Position numbers and translations under genes: made by a program
The notes under the pieces: generated by a model
What the model was told of the DNA's origin: nothing
What the model saw: only the letters and a program-made list of their open reading frames with translations
The model's database searches: none
Part shown: positions 50,939 to 56,416 of the stretch, in pieces
Numbering within the stretch: the stretch's first letter is position 1
How the letters are laid out: each line of letters opens with the position of its first letter
Assembly: GCA_030156255.1 (NCBI GenBank)
Contig: JASGMV010000020.1
Location: forward strand, 1 to 57,152
Source of the DNA: Desulfovibrionales bacterium
GTDB taxonomy: Bacteria > Desulfobacterota > Desulfovibrionia > Desulfovibrionales > Desulfovibrionaceae
Reading direction: 5' to 3'
DNA length: 57,152 nucleotides

Positions 50939-51937
50939 TCAGACGTTGTTGGCGCGGCCTTTGCGTTTGCCTTTGGTGAGCTTTTTGACCACACAGGTTT
51001 CCGGGTCCTTGCCCTCCAGCTTCTCAAGGTCCACTTCGGCCCGGGCCGCGCCGCGGTGCCCGCCCGCCGAGCCGATGTCGCCGAATAGGGACTTGGCGAA
51101 CTTGCCCATATCCTTGCGTTGGCCGTCGCCGCGGAAAATGGCGATAAGTTTGTCGTCGAACTCCCCGCTGATGACGTTCCACGGCACCCCGTGCACGCGC
51201 ATGAAGAAGTCGGCTAGAATGACCAGAATGTCCGGGTTCTCCACCACGCCCATGTGTGCGTACAATCCCCCGCCGATCTGGCGCAGGTTGTAGAAAGCCC
51301 GGGAGAAGTAGCGCAGCCAGTCCAGATGAAACTCGCTGCGCGCGATGCGCTTGAGCAGCAGTTGGTCGGCGTGTTTGGACAAAAAGCGGAAGGCCTTGAT
51401 GTCCGCGTCCACGAAGGCGCGCTCGAAACTCTGGGTGTCGGCTTTGACGCCGTAAAGCAGCGCCGTGGCCAGGAGTTTACCGGGTCGGATATCGAGGTTG
51501 TAGAGGTACTCGGTGAGAATGGTGCAGGTGGCGCCGTATTCGGGTTTGATTTCTACGTAGGGAGCGACGACCGGATGTTCCGGGAGGATGGGATGGTGGT
51601 CGATGACGATGGAGAAGTCCAGTTTGGCGAATTCCGGGTTGTGATGCGGTTGCGAGTCCACCAATGCGAACTTATCATACTGCGCCACGAGGTTGGGAAT
51701 GCATTTTCTTGTCGGTATTCGCAGGTACCGGATCATGGCCAAATTATCGGGCCGTTTGATCTCGTTGATCTGGGTAATGCCCACGTCGGCGACCTTGCGC
51801 GCTAGAATGCGCTTGAGCCCCATGGCGGCTCCCAGCGCGTCGGGATCGGCGTTGATGACGATGAGCCACCGATCATCCTTGCACAGGAGCTTGAGCATAC
51901 CCTGCAACTGTTCTTCAAGCTGTCGAAAATACGCCAT
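50939..51937 (-). CDS. DHH-family phosphoesterase
   Basis: This 332-residue protein of the DHH/DHHA1 superfamily (RecJ/NrnA-like) hydrolyses phosphodiesters such as nanoRNA, short oligonucleotides or cyclic dinucleotide products. Motif I is VINADPDALGAAMG (Asn replaces the usual His), motif II FALVDSQP, motif III the DHHP in IVIDHHPILPEH, and the DHHA1 motif GSAGGHRGAARAE. A Lys/Arg-rich tail ends the protein. It is 10-12 bases from both cobU and polA. Its exact substrate is unknown; the Asn in motif I may lower metal binding. Confidence 0.92.
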   Translation of the reverse strand: MAYFRQLEEQLQGMLKLLCKDDRWLIVINADPDALGAAMGLKRILARKVADVGITQINEIKRPDNLAMIRYLRIPTRKCIPNLVAQYDKFALVDSQPHHNPEFAKLDFSIVIDHHPILPEHPVVAPYVEIKPEYGATCTILTEYLYNLDIRPGKLLATALLYGVKADTQSFERAFVDADIKAFRFLSKHADQLLLKRIARSEFHLDWLRYFSRAFYNLRQIGGGLYAHMGVVENPDILVILADFFMRVHGVPWNVISGEFDDKLIAIFRGDGQRKDMGKFAKSLFGDIGSAGGHRGAARAEVDLEKLEGKDPETCVVKKLTKGKRKGRANNV

Positions 51938-51947
51938 ATTCGCCCTT

Positions 51948-52487
51948 TCAGAATGCGGGTCCCTTGAGATGCAGCGGCAGGCCGGCGGCCACGAAGGTTA
52001 CCTGGTCGGCCGCATGGGCCACGGCCCGGTTCAATCCGCCAAGCTCCCGCACAAAGGCCCGGCTCGCGGCCTCTCCCGGACTCAGACCGAGCCCCGTCTC
52101 CTGCGACACCAAAATCAGGTCCGCAGGCCTGTGCGCTTCCGAACCGGCCTCGTCCCAGTGGGACAACACCTCCAGAAACGCCTCCCGTTGCTCTCGGACA
52201 ACGCCCAGCTCCCGGCAGGTGAACAACCAGAAGTCCAGGCTGTCGACCAGGATCGCCGACCATCGGCCGCGCTCCCGCTCCAGCGACGCAGCCAGCTCGG
52301 CCGCGACCTCCAGCACATCGATCCCCGCCGAACGCGAGCGGCGATGGGCCAGGATTTGCTCCCGGAAGGCCAGATCCCGGGCGCGGCCCGTCGCCACAAA
52401 AAGCTTTTCTCCCGCATGAGATCCCAGCAGGTCGAGCGCGACATCGGACTTGCCCGAGGCTTGTCCGCCCAACACCAGAGTTCTCAT
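51948..52487 (-). CDS. cobU: Adenosylcobinamide kinase / adenosylcobinamide-phosphate guanylyltransferase
   Basis: CobU phosphorylates adenosylcobinamide and transfers GMP to give adenosyl-GDP-cobinamide, the activated lower-ligand acceptor in cobamide assembly. The 179 residues have the P-loop TLVLGGQASGKS at the N-terminus, the segment LFVATGRA, AHRRSR in the region of the guanylylated His, ILVDSLDFWL and LILVSQETGLGLSP. The start at 52487 gives the family length but has only a weak site; ATG 52505 adds six residues. It is 34 bases from cbiR, matching a salvage pathway. Confidence 0.93.
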   Translation of the reverse strand: MRTLVLGGQASGKSDVALDLLGSHAGEKLFVATGRARDLAFREQILAHRRSRSAGIDVLEVAAELAASLERERGRWSAILVDSLDFWLFTCRELGVVREQREAFLEVLSHWDEAGSEAHRPADLILVSQETGLGLSPGEAASRAFVRELGGLNRAVAHAADQVTFVAAGLPLHLKGPAF

Positions 52488-52521
52488 TCCAAATTTCAAC
52501 GACATGCAGAGCCAGTATCTC

Positions 52522-53268
52522 TCAGCAGAAGGCTTCGGTGTCAAGCTTCGGGGCGCAAAGCAGCCCCTCAAGAACAACGGCCGACTCGCGATAGCCTTCC
52601 GGGTCAAAAACTTCAATCATTTTCACGGCGTCCTCTTTGGCCTGAGCCAGGACGCCGGCTGTAACATTTTGTCCTCTCTCGCTTAATTGGAGCATGGATG
52701 CGTGAGAAAATTGTGCTCCGGCGCCATGCAAATGCAGCATCCGTGTATGCCTGAAAAGGCCTGGAAGCGCCAGTGCGGCGTCCTGCCCATACTTGAGCGC
52801 GTGCCCCACGTCCAGGCAGACGCCGAAGCCAAGCCGTGAAATTTGCGGCCAAATTTCGGTCAGGTCGCAATCTTTAACATTTTCTATCAACACGCGCCCG
52901 GGAGCCCAGCCGGCCGCCTCGAAAGCGCGAGCCGCGGCCGCAAGCATGTCCGGCGGAGGAGGGTGCAGCACCGCGGCCCAGGGCGACAGGCGAGCGCATT
53001 TTTCCAACAATTTGCGGATTACCGCGAAACCGGCGTCAAAGCCCCTTTCCCAAGGCAAATCCAAGGGTAAGTGGAGATGAAATCGTAAGCCCGTCTCCGG
53101 CAGCCATGCCGGCAAGTCCGCCTCGCCATAGGCCAGGCAGGCCTCGGATTCAAACAGGCACACGCCGACCTCGGAGACCTCGGGCAGCCTCTGCGCGATC
53201 CATCGGCAGTTTTCGGCCACGGTTCCGGGCCAAAGAAACGAAGGCGCCGCCAGGTTCGAAACGGACAT
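52522..53268 (-). CDS. cbiR: Cobamide-remodelling phosphodiesterase CbiR (AP endonuclease 2 superfamily)
   Basis: This 248-residue TIM-barrel protein of the xylose isomerase/AP-endonuclease superfamily has metal-site segments FHLHLPLD, VLHPPPPD, VLIENVKDCD, VCLDVGHALKYG and MLHLHGAGA. CbiR hydrolyses cobamides to cobinamide phosphate and the alpha-riboside, allowing the lower ligand to be replaced. Adjacency to cobU, which acts on the product, supports that over sugar isomerase or endonuclease IV roles. A GGAG site lies 8 bases before the ATG. It is 16 bases after the EndoQ-UvrD gene. Confidence 0.82.
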   Translation of the reverse strand: MSVSNLAAPSFLWPGTVAENCRWIAQRLPEVSEVGVCLFESEACLAYGEADLPAWLPETGLRFHLHLPLDLPWERGFDAGFAVIRKLLEKCARLSPWAAVLHPPPPDMLAAAARAFEAAGWAPGRVLIENVKDCDLTEIWPQISRLGFGVCLDVGHALKYGQDAALALPGLFRHTRMLHLHGAGAQFSHASMLQLSERGQNVTAGVLAQAKEDAVKMIEVFDPEGYRESAVVLEGLLCAPKLDTEAFC

Positions 53269-53284: not shown

Positions 53285-56200
53285 CTAATCCAGCAGGCTC
53301 ACCGGTTTTTCGCTGATCACTTTGCGGGCCACCAGGGCCGAGCGGGTCCAATCGGTCTGCGGCAACTCGCGAATGAACCGCGAGGGAGACAACATCAGGT
53401 GTTTTCCGAAAAGTCGACGTTTGGCCGAGGAGCTCAGGTACAAAAGACGGCGGGCGCGCGTCAAACCCACATACAGCAGCCGGCGCTCTTCCTCCAGGTT
53501 GAACGACCGGCCCACGCCGCCCTCCGGCACCTTGCCCGTCAGCACGTCCACCCCGGCGAAGGGGAGCAAGCCCTCCTCCAGAGCCGGCAGGAAGACGGCC
53601 TCGAACTCCAGGCCCTTGGCCGCGTGCAAGGTCAGAATCTGCACCTTCTCGGCTCGGCGGGAGACCAGCTCCAGCTCGTTCTGCAGATTGATCCAGTTGA
53701 TAAGCCCGGTCCAAGTTTGATGCTCGTCAAAGGCCTTGCACAGCCGGTGAAAGGGTCTGCTTTCCCAGAACAGGTGGTCGAAAGGCTGGATGTCCGACAG
53801 GTAGGCGGCCAACCCCAACGGACCCTGGGCCAATATTTTTTCGGGCAGCGCCAACACATCTTCGGACTCGTCGTCCGCCAAACCGACCATCCGCCCGGCC
53901 GCGCGCAGAATGGTCGCCACGCGGGGCTCCGTCCAGAAGGCCTCCTCCTCGGGCGCGCTCACCGGAACGCCTTGCCGGGACAGCGCCTTCTCCAACGGGC
54001 CGATCAACGCCCGGAACCGGACCAGCACGGCCACGTCGCCCGGAGCCAGTTCTCCTTCGCCGCCGGCGTCGACCAGCGTGTGGCTGGTGGCGCCGATAAG
54101 CCGGCGGATGCGTTCGGCGATCCAGGATGCCTCGCGCTCGGGACCGGGCGCCTGGAAGAAATGAATTTCCGCGTTCGAAGGCTGCATAGCCTTGAGCTTG
54201 GCCGACTGCGGCGTCAATCCGTGGGCCGTGTCCAGAATGGCTTGGCGGGATCGATAGTTCTCCGCCAGCTCCACCACCGTCAGGTCCGGCCAACGCCCGC
54301 GCAAAACGCCTTCCGGATCGGAAACCGCGCCGCGAAAGCCATAGATGGACTGGTTTGGGTCGCCGATGGCGAAAAAGCCCTCCCCGTCCTTCCCGGCCAG
54401 GGAGCAGCACAGTTCGAGCTGCAGCGGGGTGAGGTCCTGCACCTCGTCCACCATGATCTGGGTGTAGGGATTGGCGTAGTTGCCGGCCCGAATCTGCTCC
54501 AGCCAGTAGACGAGCAAATCCGTATAATCGGCCAAATCCCAGGTCTGCTTCTGCCGTTCGTAGCGCTGCAAAGCCTCGGCCAGCTCCGGGGGCGCCGCCG
54601 CGTCGCCTTCGAGCGAGGCGTCCTGCGGGACATGGCGCTCGCGCGCGAGCATCAGTTCGGTATAGGCGCGCTTCAGACGAGCTCCGGACAGCTCCGGATT
54701 GACCCGGGCGAAGACGCGACGGGAGGTCTCCTCGTTCATGAGCACCGGGGGTTCGCCCCGGGACTCGGTCCAGTGTTCGAAAGCCAGGGCGTGCAGCGTG
54801 TCGGCCCGCGGCAAAACTTCGTTCTCTCCCCGCAGGCGCGCCAACCGCGCCCGCAGTTCGGCCGCGGCCCGCCGGGTGAAGGTCACCGCCAGAATGGACC
54901 GGGGATTGCCGCCTTCCTCCATCAGCCGGTTGACGCGGCCCATGAGCGTCTGGGTTTTGCCCGTGCCGGGTCCGGCCTTGACCAGCACCGGACCGGGGCC
55001 GGCCCCCAGCGCCGCCTTCTGCGCCGCATTGTACTCCAAAGGTCCGGTCGGCGCGCTCTCCAAGGGCAGTTCCCCCTCGGGGTCGGCCCTTTTCACCGGG
55101 TCCGGCGCCGCGACCTCCCGAACCTGGATCAGCGTTCCTCCGGAGTGGATTTCCCGGCGCTCCTTGTCCGTGAACACGGAAATGACGCCGTACTGGCCGT
55201 CGAATCCCGGCGTACGGATGACCTCGCTGCGCCGCATGCGGCCCAACCCCTCGGCCAACGGTTTGGAGTACTTGCCGAGCTCCTCCACCGGTGTTTCCTG
55301 CAGGATGTCCAGCTCCGAGCCGAACGCACGGAGCAGTTTGGCGTAAAAACTGGAGACCTTTTTGCTTCCGGCTCCCACGCCCAGCACCTCGGAGAGAATC
55401 TCCTTGAGCGGCACAAGGGACACGAAACCGGGACGGTTGTGCGGCTTGACCGGCTCGTCGCGGTCGGCCAGGTCCAGCACCCGGCTCAAGACTCCGGTGG
55501 TGAGCGGTTTCCCGCACACCGGGCAGATTCCGCGATGCTCGTGGGCCTCCCGCGGCTCCATGACCACCCCGCATTTGCGGTGCCCGTCCAGATGGTACTT
55601 CCCTTCCTCGGGGAAAAACTCCACGGTGCCCAGAAATTTGTGGCCCAGGCTTTCGCCGCGCAAGGCGTGGTACACGCCGTCGTAGGAAGGCTCGCCCTGG
55701 AACAGGTTGGCCTCCCGGGCGAGTTTTTCTCCGGAGTGCGCGTCGGAGTTGGACACCAGCCGAAACCGATCCAGTTTCGACCACATCCAGTTCATCTCCG
55801 GGTCCGACGACAGCCCGGTCTCCAAGGCGAAAATCTCGGAGGCCAGCTCGCCGTAGCACTCTTCAATGGAGTCGAATCCGGATTTTGAGCCGAACAAGGA
55901 AAACCACGGGGTCCAGATGTGCGCCGGGATGAGAAAGGCCCGCGGATGGCTCTCCAGCACCATCTCCAACAAATGGCGCGAGTCCAGGCCAAGAATGGGC
56001 CGGCCGTCCGAGGCCAGATTGCCCACTTGCGCCAGCTTGGCGTTGATGCGGCGCACGGCGTCGAAGTCCGGGGCGTAGATCAGGTTGTGCACCTTGCGCA
56101 CGCGGCCGCCGCGCTTGTAGATAGAGGAAATCTCGGCTTGGAGCATGAACCGCACCCGTCCGGAGGGTTCGGCGCCCAGCCAGGGAAGCTCCTTCAGCAG

Positions 56201-56416
56201 ACCGGAGGTGTTGCGGAGTTTGAAGAATCCCGTCCCGTCGGGCTCCAGTTGCTCCTCCAACTCAGCCAGCCACTCCGGATGAGTGAAATCCCCCGTGCCG
56301 ACGACGTCAATGCCCTTGACCATGGCCCACGCGGCCAGAAGCCGCGGTCCCAAAGACTTGCTGGTGGCCCGGGAAAACCTGGAATGAATGTGCAAATCGG
56401 CCGTAAACCGCTCCAT
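53285..56416 (-). CDS. EndoQ-like PHP nuclease fused to UvrD/Rep helicase
   Basis: The 1043-residue fusion has residues 1-415 matching endonuclease Q: PHP metal site D7/H9/H11 (DLHIHSRFSRATS), VGTGDFTHPEWL, AHIWTPWFSLFG, VSNSDAHSGEKL, then GKYHLDGHRKCG and CPVCGKPLTTGVLSRVLDLAD (zinc site C282, C298, C301). EndoQ nicks DNA 5' of deaminated bases. Residues 460-1043 are a complete superfamily-1 helicase: GPGTGKT (482-488), DEVQD, GDPNQSIYGFRG, NYRSRQAIL, LHAAKGLEFEAVFLP, LLYVGLTRARRLL. The start is set by the PHP motif and an AAGGGGG site. It heads the operon ending in polA. Confidence 0.9.
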   Translation of the reverse strand: MERFTADLHIHSRFSRATSKSLGPRLLAAWAMVKGIDVVGTGDFTHPEWLAELEEQLEPDGTGFFKLRNTSGLLKELPWLGAEPSGRVRFMLQAEISSIYKRGGRVRKVHNLIYAPDFDAVRRINAKLAQVGNLASDGRPILGLDSRHLLEMVLESHPRAFLIPAHIWTPWFSLFGSKSGFDSIEECYGELASEIFALETGLSSDPEMNWMWSKLDRFRLVSNSDAHSGEKLAREANLFQGEPSYDGVYHALRGESLGHKFLGTVEFFPEEGKYHLDGHRKCGVVMEPREAHEHRGICPVCGKPLTTGVLSRVLDLADRDEPVKPHNRPGFVSLVPLKEILSEVLGVGAGSKKVSSFYAKLLRAFGSELDILQETPVEELGKYSKPLAEGLGRMRRSEVIRTPGFDGQYGVISVFTDKERREIHSGGTLIQVREVAAPDPVKRADPEGELPLESAPTGPLEYNAAQKAALGAGPGPVLVKAGPGTGKTQTLMGRVNRLMEEGGNPRSILAVTFTRRAAAELRARLARLRGENEVLPRADTLHALAFEHWTESRGEPPVLMNEETSRRVFARVNPELSGARLKRAYTELMLARERHVPQDASLEGDAAAPPELAEALQRYERQKQTWDLADYTDLLVYWLEQIRAGNYANPYTQIMVDEVQDLTPLQLELCCSLAGKDGEGFFAIGDPNQSIYGFRGAVSDPEGVLRGRWPDLTVVELAENYRSRQAILDTAHGLTPQSAKLKAMQPSNAEIHFFQAPGPEREASWIAERIRRLIGATSHTLVDAGGEGELAPGDVAVLVRFRALIGPLEKALSRQGVPVSAPEEEAFWTEPRVATILRAAGRMVGLADDESEDVLALPEKILAQGPLGLAAYLSDIQPFDHLFWESRPFHRLCKAFDEHQTWTGLINWINLQNELELVSRRAEKVQILTLHAAKGLEFEAVFLPALEEGLLPFAGVDVLTGKVPEGGVGRSFNLEEERRLLYVGLTRARRLLYLSSSAKRRLFGKHLMLSPSRFIRELPQTDWTRSALVARKVISEKPVSLLD

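What the first reader, a model, noticed from the sequence alone, without database searches (positions are those of the whole stretch)
53285..56416. EndoQ-type deaminated-base endonuclease fused to a complete UvrD helicase
The N-terminal 415 residues carry the PHP metal motifs and the downstream Cys region (GKYHLDG..C, CPVCGKPLTTGV) characteristic of endonuclease Q, otherwise a stand-alone enzyme known mainly from archaea and a few bacteria that incises 5' of uracil, hypoxanthine and similar lesions. The rest is a full UvrD/Rep helicase with all motifs. One polypeptide could recognise and nick at a deaminated base and then unwind the strand, a compact excision-repair machine. The residues are seen; the activity is inferred from the families.
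Basis: partly seen in the sequence, partly recalled or inferred. Interest (0 to 1): 0.75.

Follow-up and report, generated by a model that had tools for sequence, protein, structure and literature searches.

The report
Damaged-base nicking enzyme fused to helicase
This bacterial gene joins a DNA-nicking enzyme that very probably recognises chemically damaged (deaminated) bases to a DNA-unwinding motor in one protein, a combination that turns out to be widespread in bacteria and whose activity can now be tested directly.

Summary
The minus-strand ORF at 56416-53285 encodes 1043 residues: an endonuclease Q (EndoQ) fold (model vs PfuEndoQ, Z 47.3, rmsd 2.4 Å), a disordered linker of about 25 residues, and a UvrD/Rep-type helicase (Z 37-38). 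The EndoQ zinc ligands and the two base-pocket residues tested are present, as are the helicase motifs. Corrections: the helicase is not a "complete" UvrD (short 2B subdomain, no C-terminal tail), the EndoQ zinc ribbon is His-Cys-Cys-Cys, and bacterial EndoQ is not rare. The fusion is the usual form in this Desulfovibrio-type order and occurs under 15 NCBI phylum names. In five other loci the helicase is a separate gene directly behind EndoQ. The linked helicases fall apart from housekeeping UvrD/Rep in the trees, and many end in a sliding-clamp motif (degenerate in this protein). In 15 of 20 other loci of this order's group the gene precedes a DHH phosphoesterase, usually with DNA polymerase I next. 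39 of 59 genomes of the order, this one included, show neither uracil-DNA glycosylase nor EndoV. Best reading: a nick-and-unwind initiator of deaminated-base repair, handing over to Pol I. Activity is inferred. The full-text searches made found no description of the fusion. New variant of a known kind.

The parts
53285..56416 (-). EndoQ-UvrD fusion gene, 1043 aa, ATG at 56416
55121..56416 (-). EndoQ half, residues 1-432: PHP nuclease domain (D7, H9, H11, D43, E95, H110, H166, E199, D225, H227), base pocket (G201, S203), zinc ribbon H279-C282-C298-C301, C-terminal part to about 430
55055..55129 (-). linker, residues 430-454, predicted disordered (pLDDT under 50)
53327..55054 (-). UvrD/Rep-type SF1A helicase half, residues 455-1030: motif I GPGTGKT 482-488, motif II DE 657-658, GDPNQSIYGFRG 685-696, motif V region 931-937, EERRLLYVGLTRAR 976-989; short 2B subdomain
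   Evidence: motif names recalled
53288..53311 (-). C-terminal tail EKPVSLLD, at the place where many homologues carry a Q[LM]xLF clamp-binding motif; here degenerate
52522..53268 (-). cbiR (cobamide remodelling phosphodiesterase), next gene; variable passenger in the gene row
   Evidence: NF041277; synteny
51948..52616 (-). cobU-like ORF (listed from a TTG, true start not tested); variable passenger
   Evidence: PF02283
50939..51937 (-). DHH-family phosphoesterase, downstream neighbour in 15 of 20 other loci of the order's group with room
   Evidence: PF01368
48302..50926 (-). polA, DNA polymerase I with 5'-3' exonuclease domain, downstream neighbour in 14 of 20 other loci of the order's group with room

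Best explanation
A chromosomal repair enzyme that starts nick-initiated excision of deaminated bases. The EndoQ half flips out uracil, hypoxanthine or similar bases and nicks the strand just 5' of them, leaving a 3'-OH. The tethered UvrD-type motor, presumably 3' to 5', loads at that nick and, moving on the undamaged strand, peels off the lesion-carrying strand as a 5' flap; a C-terminal clamp-binding tail (clear in many homologues, degenerate here) would hold the enzyme at the replication clamp. Pol I, encoded in the same gene row, would extend the 3'-OH and cut the flap; the DHH phosphoesterase may degrade the short product. Shown here: sequence, fold, catalytic residues, conservation, gene order, no detectable UDG or EndoV in this genome. 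Inferred: every activity, the polarity, the coupling and the hand-over.
For: EndoQ half: Z 47.3 to PfuEndoQ; zinc ligands conserved in 164 of 164 aligned EndoQ halves (the window's included), pocket G in 163 and S in 164, SDAH Asp in 162 of 164 (a few rows are the same genome fetched twice). Helicase half: Walker A K487, D657/E658 and R987 invariant in 57 of 57 fused proteins aligned. Partnership seen in a second way: five of 173 EndoQ loci have EndoQ and a related helicase as neighbouring same-strand genes, gaps -25 to +131 bp. In the trees 14 housekeeping UvrD/Rep-type rows form one side of a branch (SH-aLRT 99; 96 and 97 in two other row sets), the EndoQ-linked helicases the other. C-terminal Q[LM]xLF in 68 of 122 fused, 5 of 5 adjacent helicases, 0 of 19 housekeeping UvrD/Rep-type; shuffled expectation 0.14 for the fused. 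DHH gene downstream on the same strand in 15 of 20 other loci of the order's group with at least 2.7 kb of room, polA in 14, and both in the window; the best upstream family is shared by only 5 of 12 loci with room. UDG family PF03167 in 20 of 59 relatives and not in the own genome, while 13 of 14 control genomes ring. EndoV in 2 of 59, but only 6 of 14 controls have it.
Against: No assay. This protein's own tail lacks the strict clamp motif; counting it, 36 of the 43 fused rows of the order's group lack it. Outside the order UDG is common: 264 of 297 phylum genomes, and all 18 fusion-bearing genomes tested outside the order have it (19 of 20 tested in all), so the enzyme is not a general stand-in for UDG. 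The polA row was seen only in the order: no recurrent neighbour outside it. Helicase loss is frequent: the EndoQ tree needs about 19 changes of the fused label, at least 15 by starred branches, and in 9 genomes whose lone EndoQ lies inside the fused clade the helicases placed were all housekeeping-type (G126's EndoQ is at a contig end), so EndoQ can probably work without the motor. The rooting of the EndoQ tree rests on one long-branched outgroup.
Confidence: 0.7

Rival explanations
1. The two halves share a polypeptide only to be co-expressed or co-localised: EndoQ nicks, Pol I alone displaces the strand, and the helicase serves another step such as clearing the nuclease or moving stalled forks.
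For: EndoQ without the helicase persists in many genomes, and the fused form seems to revert to lone EndoQ often. The linker is disordered and pTM is only 0.59, so no fixed coupling is predicted.
Against: Helicase catalytic residues are invariant in 57 of 57 aligned fusions, and in five loci the helicase stands directly behind EndoQ as a separate gene.
Confidence: 0.2
2. An anti-phage nuclease-helicase, in the manner of Gabija, aimed at phages with deaminated or uracil-containing DNA.
For: The helicase half matches PADLOC GajB models (best E 1.1e-63). A review raises antiviral defence for bacterial EndoQ (passage).
Against: PcrA and Rep models match about as well (E 6e-62 and 3.9e-59 in another library), so the GajB match shows the superfamily only. 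The gene is nearly universal in its family (TIGR00375 in 35 of 38 genomes; 31 of 31 good ones) and in the order often stands in one row with polA; no confirmed hit in phages, plasmids or viral contigs by the scans used; no recurrent neighbours outside the order.
Confidence: 0.05
3. Housekeeping UvrD-like function with a vestigial EndoQ domain.
For: Two fused rows do show change in the nuclease half: L039 has SNAH in place of SDAH, and L049 has lost the SDAH motif and the pocket Gly, though it keeps the three zinc ligands and the helicase.
Against: 162 of 164 rows keep the SDAH Asp, and the window protein keeps every tested residue. The genome has a separate UvrD.
Confidence: 0.04

Closest known systems
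Endonuclease Q (PfuEndoQ, PF1551; B. pumilus EndoQ)
   Same: Fold, PHP metal ligands, tested pocket residues, zinc ribbon position (compared with PfuEndoQ only, no B. pumilus sequence was used). The published clamp link at the C-terminus (archaeal PIP box; clamp motif noted in bacterial homologues, PMC4858679 passage) recurs on the fused helicase's tail in many homologues.
   Different: Followed by a helicase; zinc ribbon His-Cys-Cys-Cys (His in 160 of 164 rows) instead of Cys4; 15 instead of 8 residues between two zinc ligands (E95-H110 vs E76-H84); below the TIGR00375 cut-off.
UvrD/PcrA/Rep SF1A helicases
   Same: Motifs and fold, Z 37-38.
   Different: Short 2B subdomain, no UvrD-type C-terminal tail, own side of the tree, far below PcrA/Rep/UvrD equivalog cut-offs.
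Published EndoQ repair models (PMC4357722, PMC8438529, passages seen)
   Same: Nick 5' of the lesion, then strand displacement or removal, flap cutting, polymerase and ligase; each mentions a helicase step.
   Different: There the helicase is an unnamed separate protein; here it is built in.
Gabija (GajA nuclease with GajB UvrD-like helicase)
   Same: Nuclease partnered with a UvrD-like helicase (recalled; GajB models match).
   Different: Different nuclease family, one polypeptide, near-universal gene in its family.

Membership tests
EndoQ family (broad) | PHP metal ligands incl. Pfu E76, H84, H139 and the SDAH motif | tested here: met
   E95, H110, H166, S224-D225-A226-H227
EndoQ family (broad) | Base-pocket Gly169 and Ser171 that exclude T and A (roles from PMC8307549, passage) | tested here: met
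   G201 and S203. Of the pocket only these and H139 were tested
EndoQ family (broad) | Overall EndoQ fold | tested here: met
   Z 47.3, rmsd 2.4, 386 residues aligned
EndoQ family (broad) | Four-cysteine zinc ribbon | tested here: not met
   H279-C282-C298-C301: first Cys is His; shared by 160 of 164 bacterial rows including all 27 lone EndoQs. So I file it as an EndoQ-like bacterial subfamily with this variant, not as a textbook Cys4 EndoQ
TIGR00375 hypothetical equivalog | Score above curated cut-off 326.6 | tested here: not met
   165 bits; 0 of 297 phylum genomes pass
EndoQ family (broad) | Incision 5' of uracil/hypoxanthine/AP site | not testable with these tools
   needs purified protein
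UvrD/PcrA/Rep helicase | SF1A helicase motifs with Walker A Lys, DE box and motif VI Arg | tested here: met
   K487, D657, E658, R987
UvrD/PcrA/Rep helicase | Full-size 2B subdomain and UvrD C-terminal tail | tested here: not met
   99 vs 173 and 14 vs 73 residues; (subdomain limits recalled; E. coli Rep too has a short tail, 19)
UvrD/PcrA/Rep helicase | Equivalog cut-off score | tested here: not met
   210 vs 911 bits for PcrA. Filed as UvrD-like, not UvrD
Sliding-clamp client | C-terminal Q[LM]xLF motif | tested here: not met
   own tail EKPVSLLD; motif present in 68 of 122 fused homologues
Gabija | Neighbouring GajA (OLD-family nuclease) partner | tested here: inconclusive
   the genes downstream are CbiR, CobU, DHH and PolA and the small upstream ORF has no Pfam match, but the contig ends about 0.7 kb upstream and the genome was not searched for GajA

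The most novel reading that the evidence does not exclude
Bacteria widely use a clamp-tethered one-polypeptide 'nickase-helicase' for deaminated bases, a nick-initiated pathway alongside base, nucleotide and mismatch repair. In Desulfovibrionales, where most genomes sampled lack detectable UDG and EndoV, it would be the main uracil and hypoxanthine repair route, run from one gene row with Pol I. Its trees suggest a stepwise origin: lone EndoQ, then EndoQ beside a dedicated helicase gene, then fusion, with many later losses of the helicase.
Probability: 0.5. Interest if true: 0.8.

Novelty: new variant of a known kind. Interest (0 to 1): 0.6.

Why it matters
What happens after EndoQ nicks is an open point of the published models, which mention a helicase, flap nuclease and polymerase without naming the helicase. 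A natural EndoQ-helicase fusion, found across bacteria and in one order usually in a row with polA, offers a candidate partner and makes the pathway testable with one purified protein and one knockout. It also shows that EndoQ is far more common in bacteria than the papers read here say, and points to an order in which most genomes sampled have no detectable uracil-DNA glycosylase.

Tried and rejected
Viral spread: the EndoQ alignment against viral contigs gave 28 pattern matches, none confirmed; tblastn of the window's EndoQ half against phages and plasmids gave no match. Gabija-type defence: thought unlikely. UDG replacement as a general rule: rejected outside the order. Conserved gene neighbourhood outside the order: none found; the three largest clusters I read as alternative-frame ORFs overlapping the gene, from their positions. 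An AP-endonuclease role for the TIM-barrel neighbour 52522-53268 (Pfam AP_endonuc_2, below its cut-off) was considered; NCBIfam shows CbiR. That the N-terminus of G019's separate helicase is an EndoQ remnant was tested and not supported.

Literature: the paper search (EndoQ or endonuclease Q, alone and with UvrD, fusion, helicase, clamp, Desulfovibrio; PHP domain with UvrD or UvrD-like helicase; COG1379 with UvrD) gave no paper whose listing or read passages describe the fusion. Seen: PMC4357722 (passages and section 25), PMC6202378, PMC8307549, PMC7776575, PMC3820547, PMC4858679, PMC8438529 (passages only). Listed but not opened: PMC7690668, PMC7343888, PMC11354406 and others. Not held: PMC7958190 and PMC6941527. 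Figure 9A of PMC4357722, which by its legend gives domain structures and lengths of archaeal and bacterial EndoQs, and the supplementary alignments could not be seen; they may already display the long form.

Of 27 'alone' rows five have under 400 bp of sequence downstream (L079, L086, L094, L104, L106). Many phylum names come from MAGs and may be misbinned. Rows dropped: 9 duplicate loci before, 11 duplicates and 10 rows open at the 3' end, near-duplicates plus short rows, L049 and L104, near-duplicates and short rows; L047's helicase was labelled housekeeping and fell in the fused clade.
Full report
WHAT IS THERE. The gene is the minus-strand ORF 56416-53285, 1043 residues, with a ribosome-binding-like AAGGGGG just before its ATG. 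phmmer matches residues 6-414 to PfuEndoQ and 463 onwards to UvrD, PcrA and Rep. An AlphaFold2 model built from an alignment of 57 fused proteins has mean pLDDT 89.3 with a disordered linker at 430-454 and pTM 0.59: two well-folded halves, mutual placement not fixed. VIA-align gives Z 47.3 (rmsd 2.4 Å, 386 residues) to PfuEndoQ and 37-38 to Rep, PcrA and UvrD; Foldseek lists the same families on top.

CATALYTIC RESIDUES. In 164 bacterial EndoQ halves (the window's included) aligned with PfuEndoQ, the three zinc ligands needed for cleavage (Pfu E76, H84, H139; PMC8307549 passage) are E95, H110, H166, present in 164 of 164. Pocket G169 and S171 are G201 (163 of 164) and S203 (164 of 164). The SDAH Asp is D225, present in 162 of 164. 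The first cysteine of the zinc ribbon is histidine in 160 of 164, in lone and fused forms alike. The helicase half has K487, D657, E658, R987 and other motif residues invariant in 57 of 57 aligned fusions. Its 2B subdomain is 99 residues against 173 in E. coli UvrD, and the UvrD tail is missing (limits recalled).

HOW COMMON. In the own genome there is one fusion and one ordinary UvrD. Among 59 genomes of the order (own included), a match over the EndoQ half appears in 56, in 52 of them in one frame of 996 aa or more. G003, G018 and G022 (89, 74 and 67% complete) lack it; G003 has a helicase fragment 48% identical to this one, so its EndoQ may only be missing from the draft. TIGR00375 is found in 35 of 38 family genomes, 31 of 31 of good quality, and in 194 of 297 genomes of the phylum. 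In samples centred on named-phylum genomes: Actinomycetota 7 of 246 positive, 4 of the 7 with frames of 998-1134 aa, two of the 7 weak; Planctomycetota 26 of 246, 10 of the 26 with frames over 1000 aa. Frame length alone does not prove a helicase there. In the 80 named loci, BLAST classed 71 as fused, 2 as EndoQ with the helicase gene directly behind, 7 as alone, two of these cut by a contig end; fused rows carry 15 NCBI phylum names, including the named strains Geobacter argillaceus ATCC BAA-1139, Fodinibius roseus DSM 21986 and Saccharothrix deserti BMP B8144. Most other rows are MAGs.

HISTORY. In helicase trees the 14 housekeeping UvrD/Rep-type rows form one side of a branch (SH-aLRT 99, 129 rows; 97, 44 rows; with added unlinked housekeeping rows 96, 88 rows), and the EndoQ-linked helicases form the other. 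Forcing the order's helicases together with housekeeping ones is only weakly rejected (AU p 0.04). The separate helicase of G019 falls inside the order's fused clade (next to another long branch): a likely fission. In the EndoQ tree rooted on Pfu (one long branch), the first branches hold only lone EndoQ and EndoQ with an adjacent helicase gene; 114 fused rows fall in a clade of 133 (SH-aLRT 95) that also holds 17 lone and 2 adjacent rows. This reads as neighbours first, fusion second, many helicase losses later; it is a suggestion, not a proof. Of 18 genomes with lone EndoQ searched for the helicase, four (G092, G266, G119, G123) have an unlinked relative of the EndoQ-linked helicases; in G092 and G266 the EndoQ lies at a contig edge, so the two may be neighbours. 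In the other 14 none was placed with the EndoQ-linked helicases; only the stronger hits were put in the tree, and G118 had weak hits only.

CLAMP MOTIF. A strict Q[LM]xLF in the last 25 residues occurs in 68 of 122 fused proteins (shuffled expectation 0.14), 5 of 5 adjacent helicases, 3 of 5 EndoQs with an adjacent helicase, 3 of 25 lone EndoQs and 0 of 19 housekeeping UvrD/Rep-type proteins. That QLxLF binds the bacterial sliding clamp is recalled. PMC4858679 (passages) shows a C-terminal PIP box in archaeal EndoQ that binds PCNA and states that bacterial EndoQ homologues, Desulfovibrio named, carry a clamp motif, so the motif itself is not new; its place at the end of the fused motor was not described in what I read. 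The window's tail is EKPVSLLD, and only 7 of the 43 fused rows of the order's group have the strict form, so clamp binding by this particular protein is doubtful.

GENE ROW. Downstream on the same strand lie cbiR, cobU, a DHH phosphoesterase and polA. In 20 other loci of the order's group with at least 2.7 kb of downstream room, DHH is there in 15 and polA in 14; neither was found in L110, L114, L118, L162 and L170. cbiR and cobU come and go: in L041, L043, L049, L100, L101 and L102 DHH and polA were found and neither of these two. Upstream, in the 15 loci with DHH, the most shared family occurs in 5 of 12 with room, so the downstream order is held more tightly than the upstream side. No recurrent neighbour was found outside the order.

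WHY THE CELL MAY NEED IT. PF03167 (UDG superfamily) is found in 20 of 59 relatives and not in the own genome, with 13 of 14 controls positive; EndoV in 2 of 59, both of which have UDG, with only 6 of 14 controls positive. So 39 of 59 show neither. Of the three genomes without EndoQ, G003 and G018 have UDG; of the 56 with it, 38 show none. These numbers are too small for a test, and G003's EndoQ may be an assembly loss. In the phylum sample 264 of 297 have UDG while all 11 genomes of the window's family in it do not. Of 20 genomes tested outside the order, 19 have UDG, among them all 18 with the fusion. So substitution for UDG is plausible in this order only. Other routes (ExoIII-type incision, AlkA) were not searched.

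MECHANISM. EndoQ leaves a 3'-OH and a 5'-phosphate at the incised site (PMC4357722 passage). A 3' to 5' motor moving on the intact strand from that nick displaces the lesion-bearing strand as a 5' flap, the substrate of Pol I's 5' nuclease, while the 3'-OH primes synthesis. Polarity, loading strand and coupling are inferred from the UvrD family; the flexible linker would let the motor load beside the bound nuclease. This fits published EndoQ models, which mention an unnamed helicase.

NOVELTY. I found no description of the fusion in the searches listed under Tried and rejected, but the PMC4357722 figure with bacterial EndoQ lengths could not be viewed, and automatic annotation of such proteins very likely exists (recalled, not searched). 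I rate it a new variant of a known kind: known enzyme, known motor, a union that I did not find described but that is common.

On re-reading the calls I mended: L049 keeps the three zinc ligands and has lost only SDAH and the pocket Gly; G003 may owe its missing EndoQ to the draft; EndoV is absent from most control genomes too; the Gabija partner test is inconclusive.

Noticed in passing
L039 (G007), EndoQ residue equivalent to D225: The fused protein of G007 reads SNAH instead of SDAH, the Asn also seen in the PfuEndoQ chains of 7k30/7k32/7k33. G007 is among the relatives that have a UDG hit. One case only.
   Followed up: partly
L048 and L049 (G032): G032 (72% complete) has a divergent fused protein at the usual DHH-polA place that has lost SDAH and the pocket Gly but keeps the zinc ligands and the helicase (L049), and a separate lone EndoQ with the tested residues intact (L048), as if the nuclease had been replaced in trans.
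   Followed up: partly
L046 and L047 (G019): EndoQ and a 779-aa helicase are on different contigs; the helicase belongs to the order's fused clade, so the fusion seems to have split. Its N-terminus shows no EndoQ remnant.
   Followed up: partly
order-wide, genomes G000-G058: 39 of 59 genomes of this order show no UDG-superfamily protein, while 13 of 14 control genomes do. EndoV is missing in 57 of 59, but also in 8 of 14 controls.
   Followed up: partly
window residues 95-110 (56134-56087, minus strand): EndoQs of this bacterial group carry a conserved stretch (EISSIYKxxGxVRKVH) that widens the spacing of two zinc ligands from 8 to 15 residues relative to PfuEndoQ; role unknown.
   Followed up: no
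window 50939-51937: The DHH phosphoesterase between the fusion and polA matches no curated NCBIfam equivalog well (best: Mn-dependent pyrophosphatase, 24.7 of 283 bits); its substrate is open.
   Followed up: no
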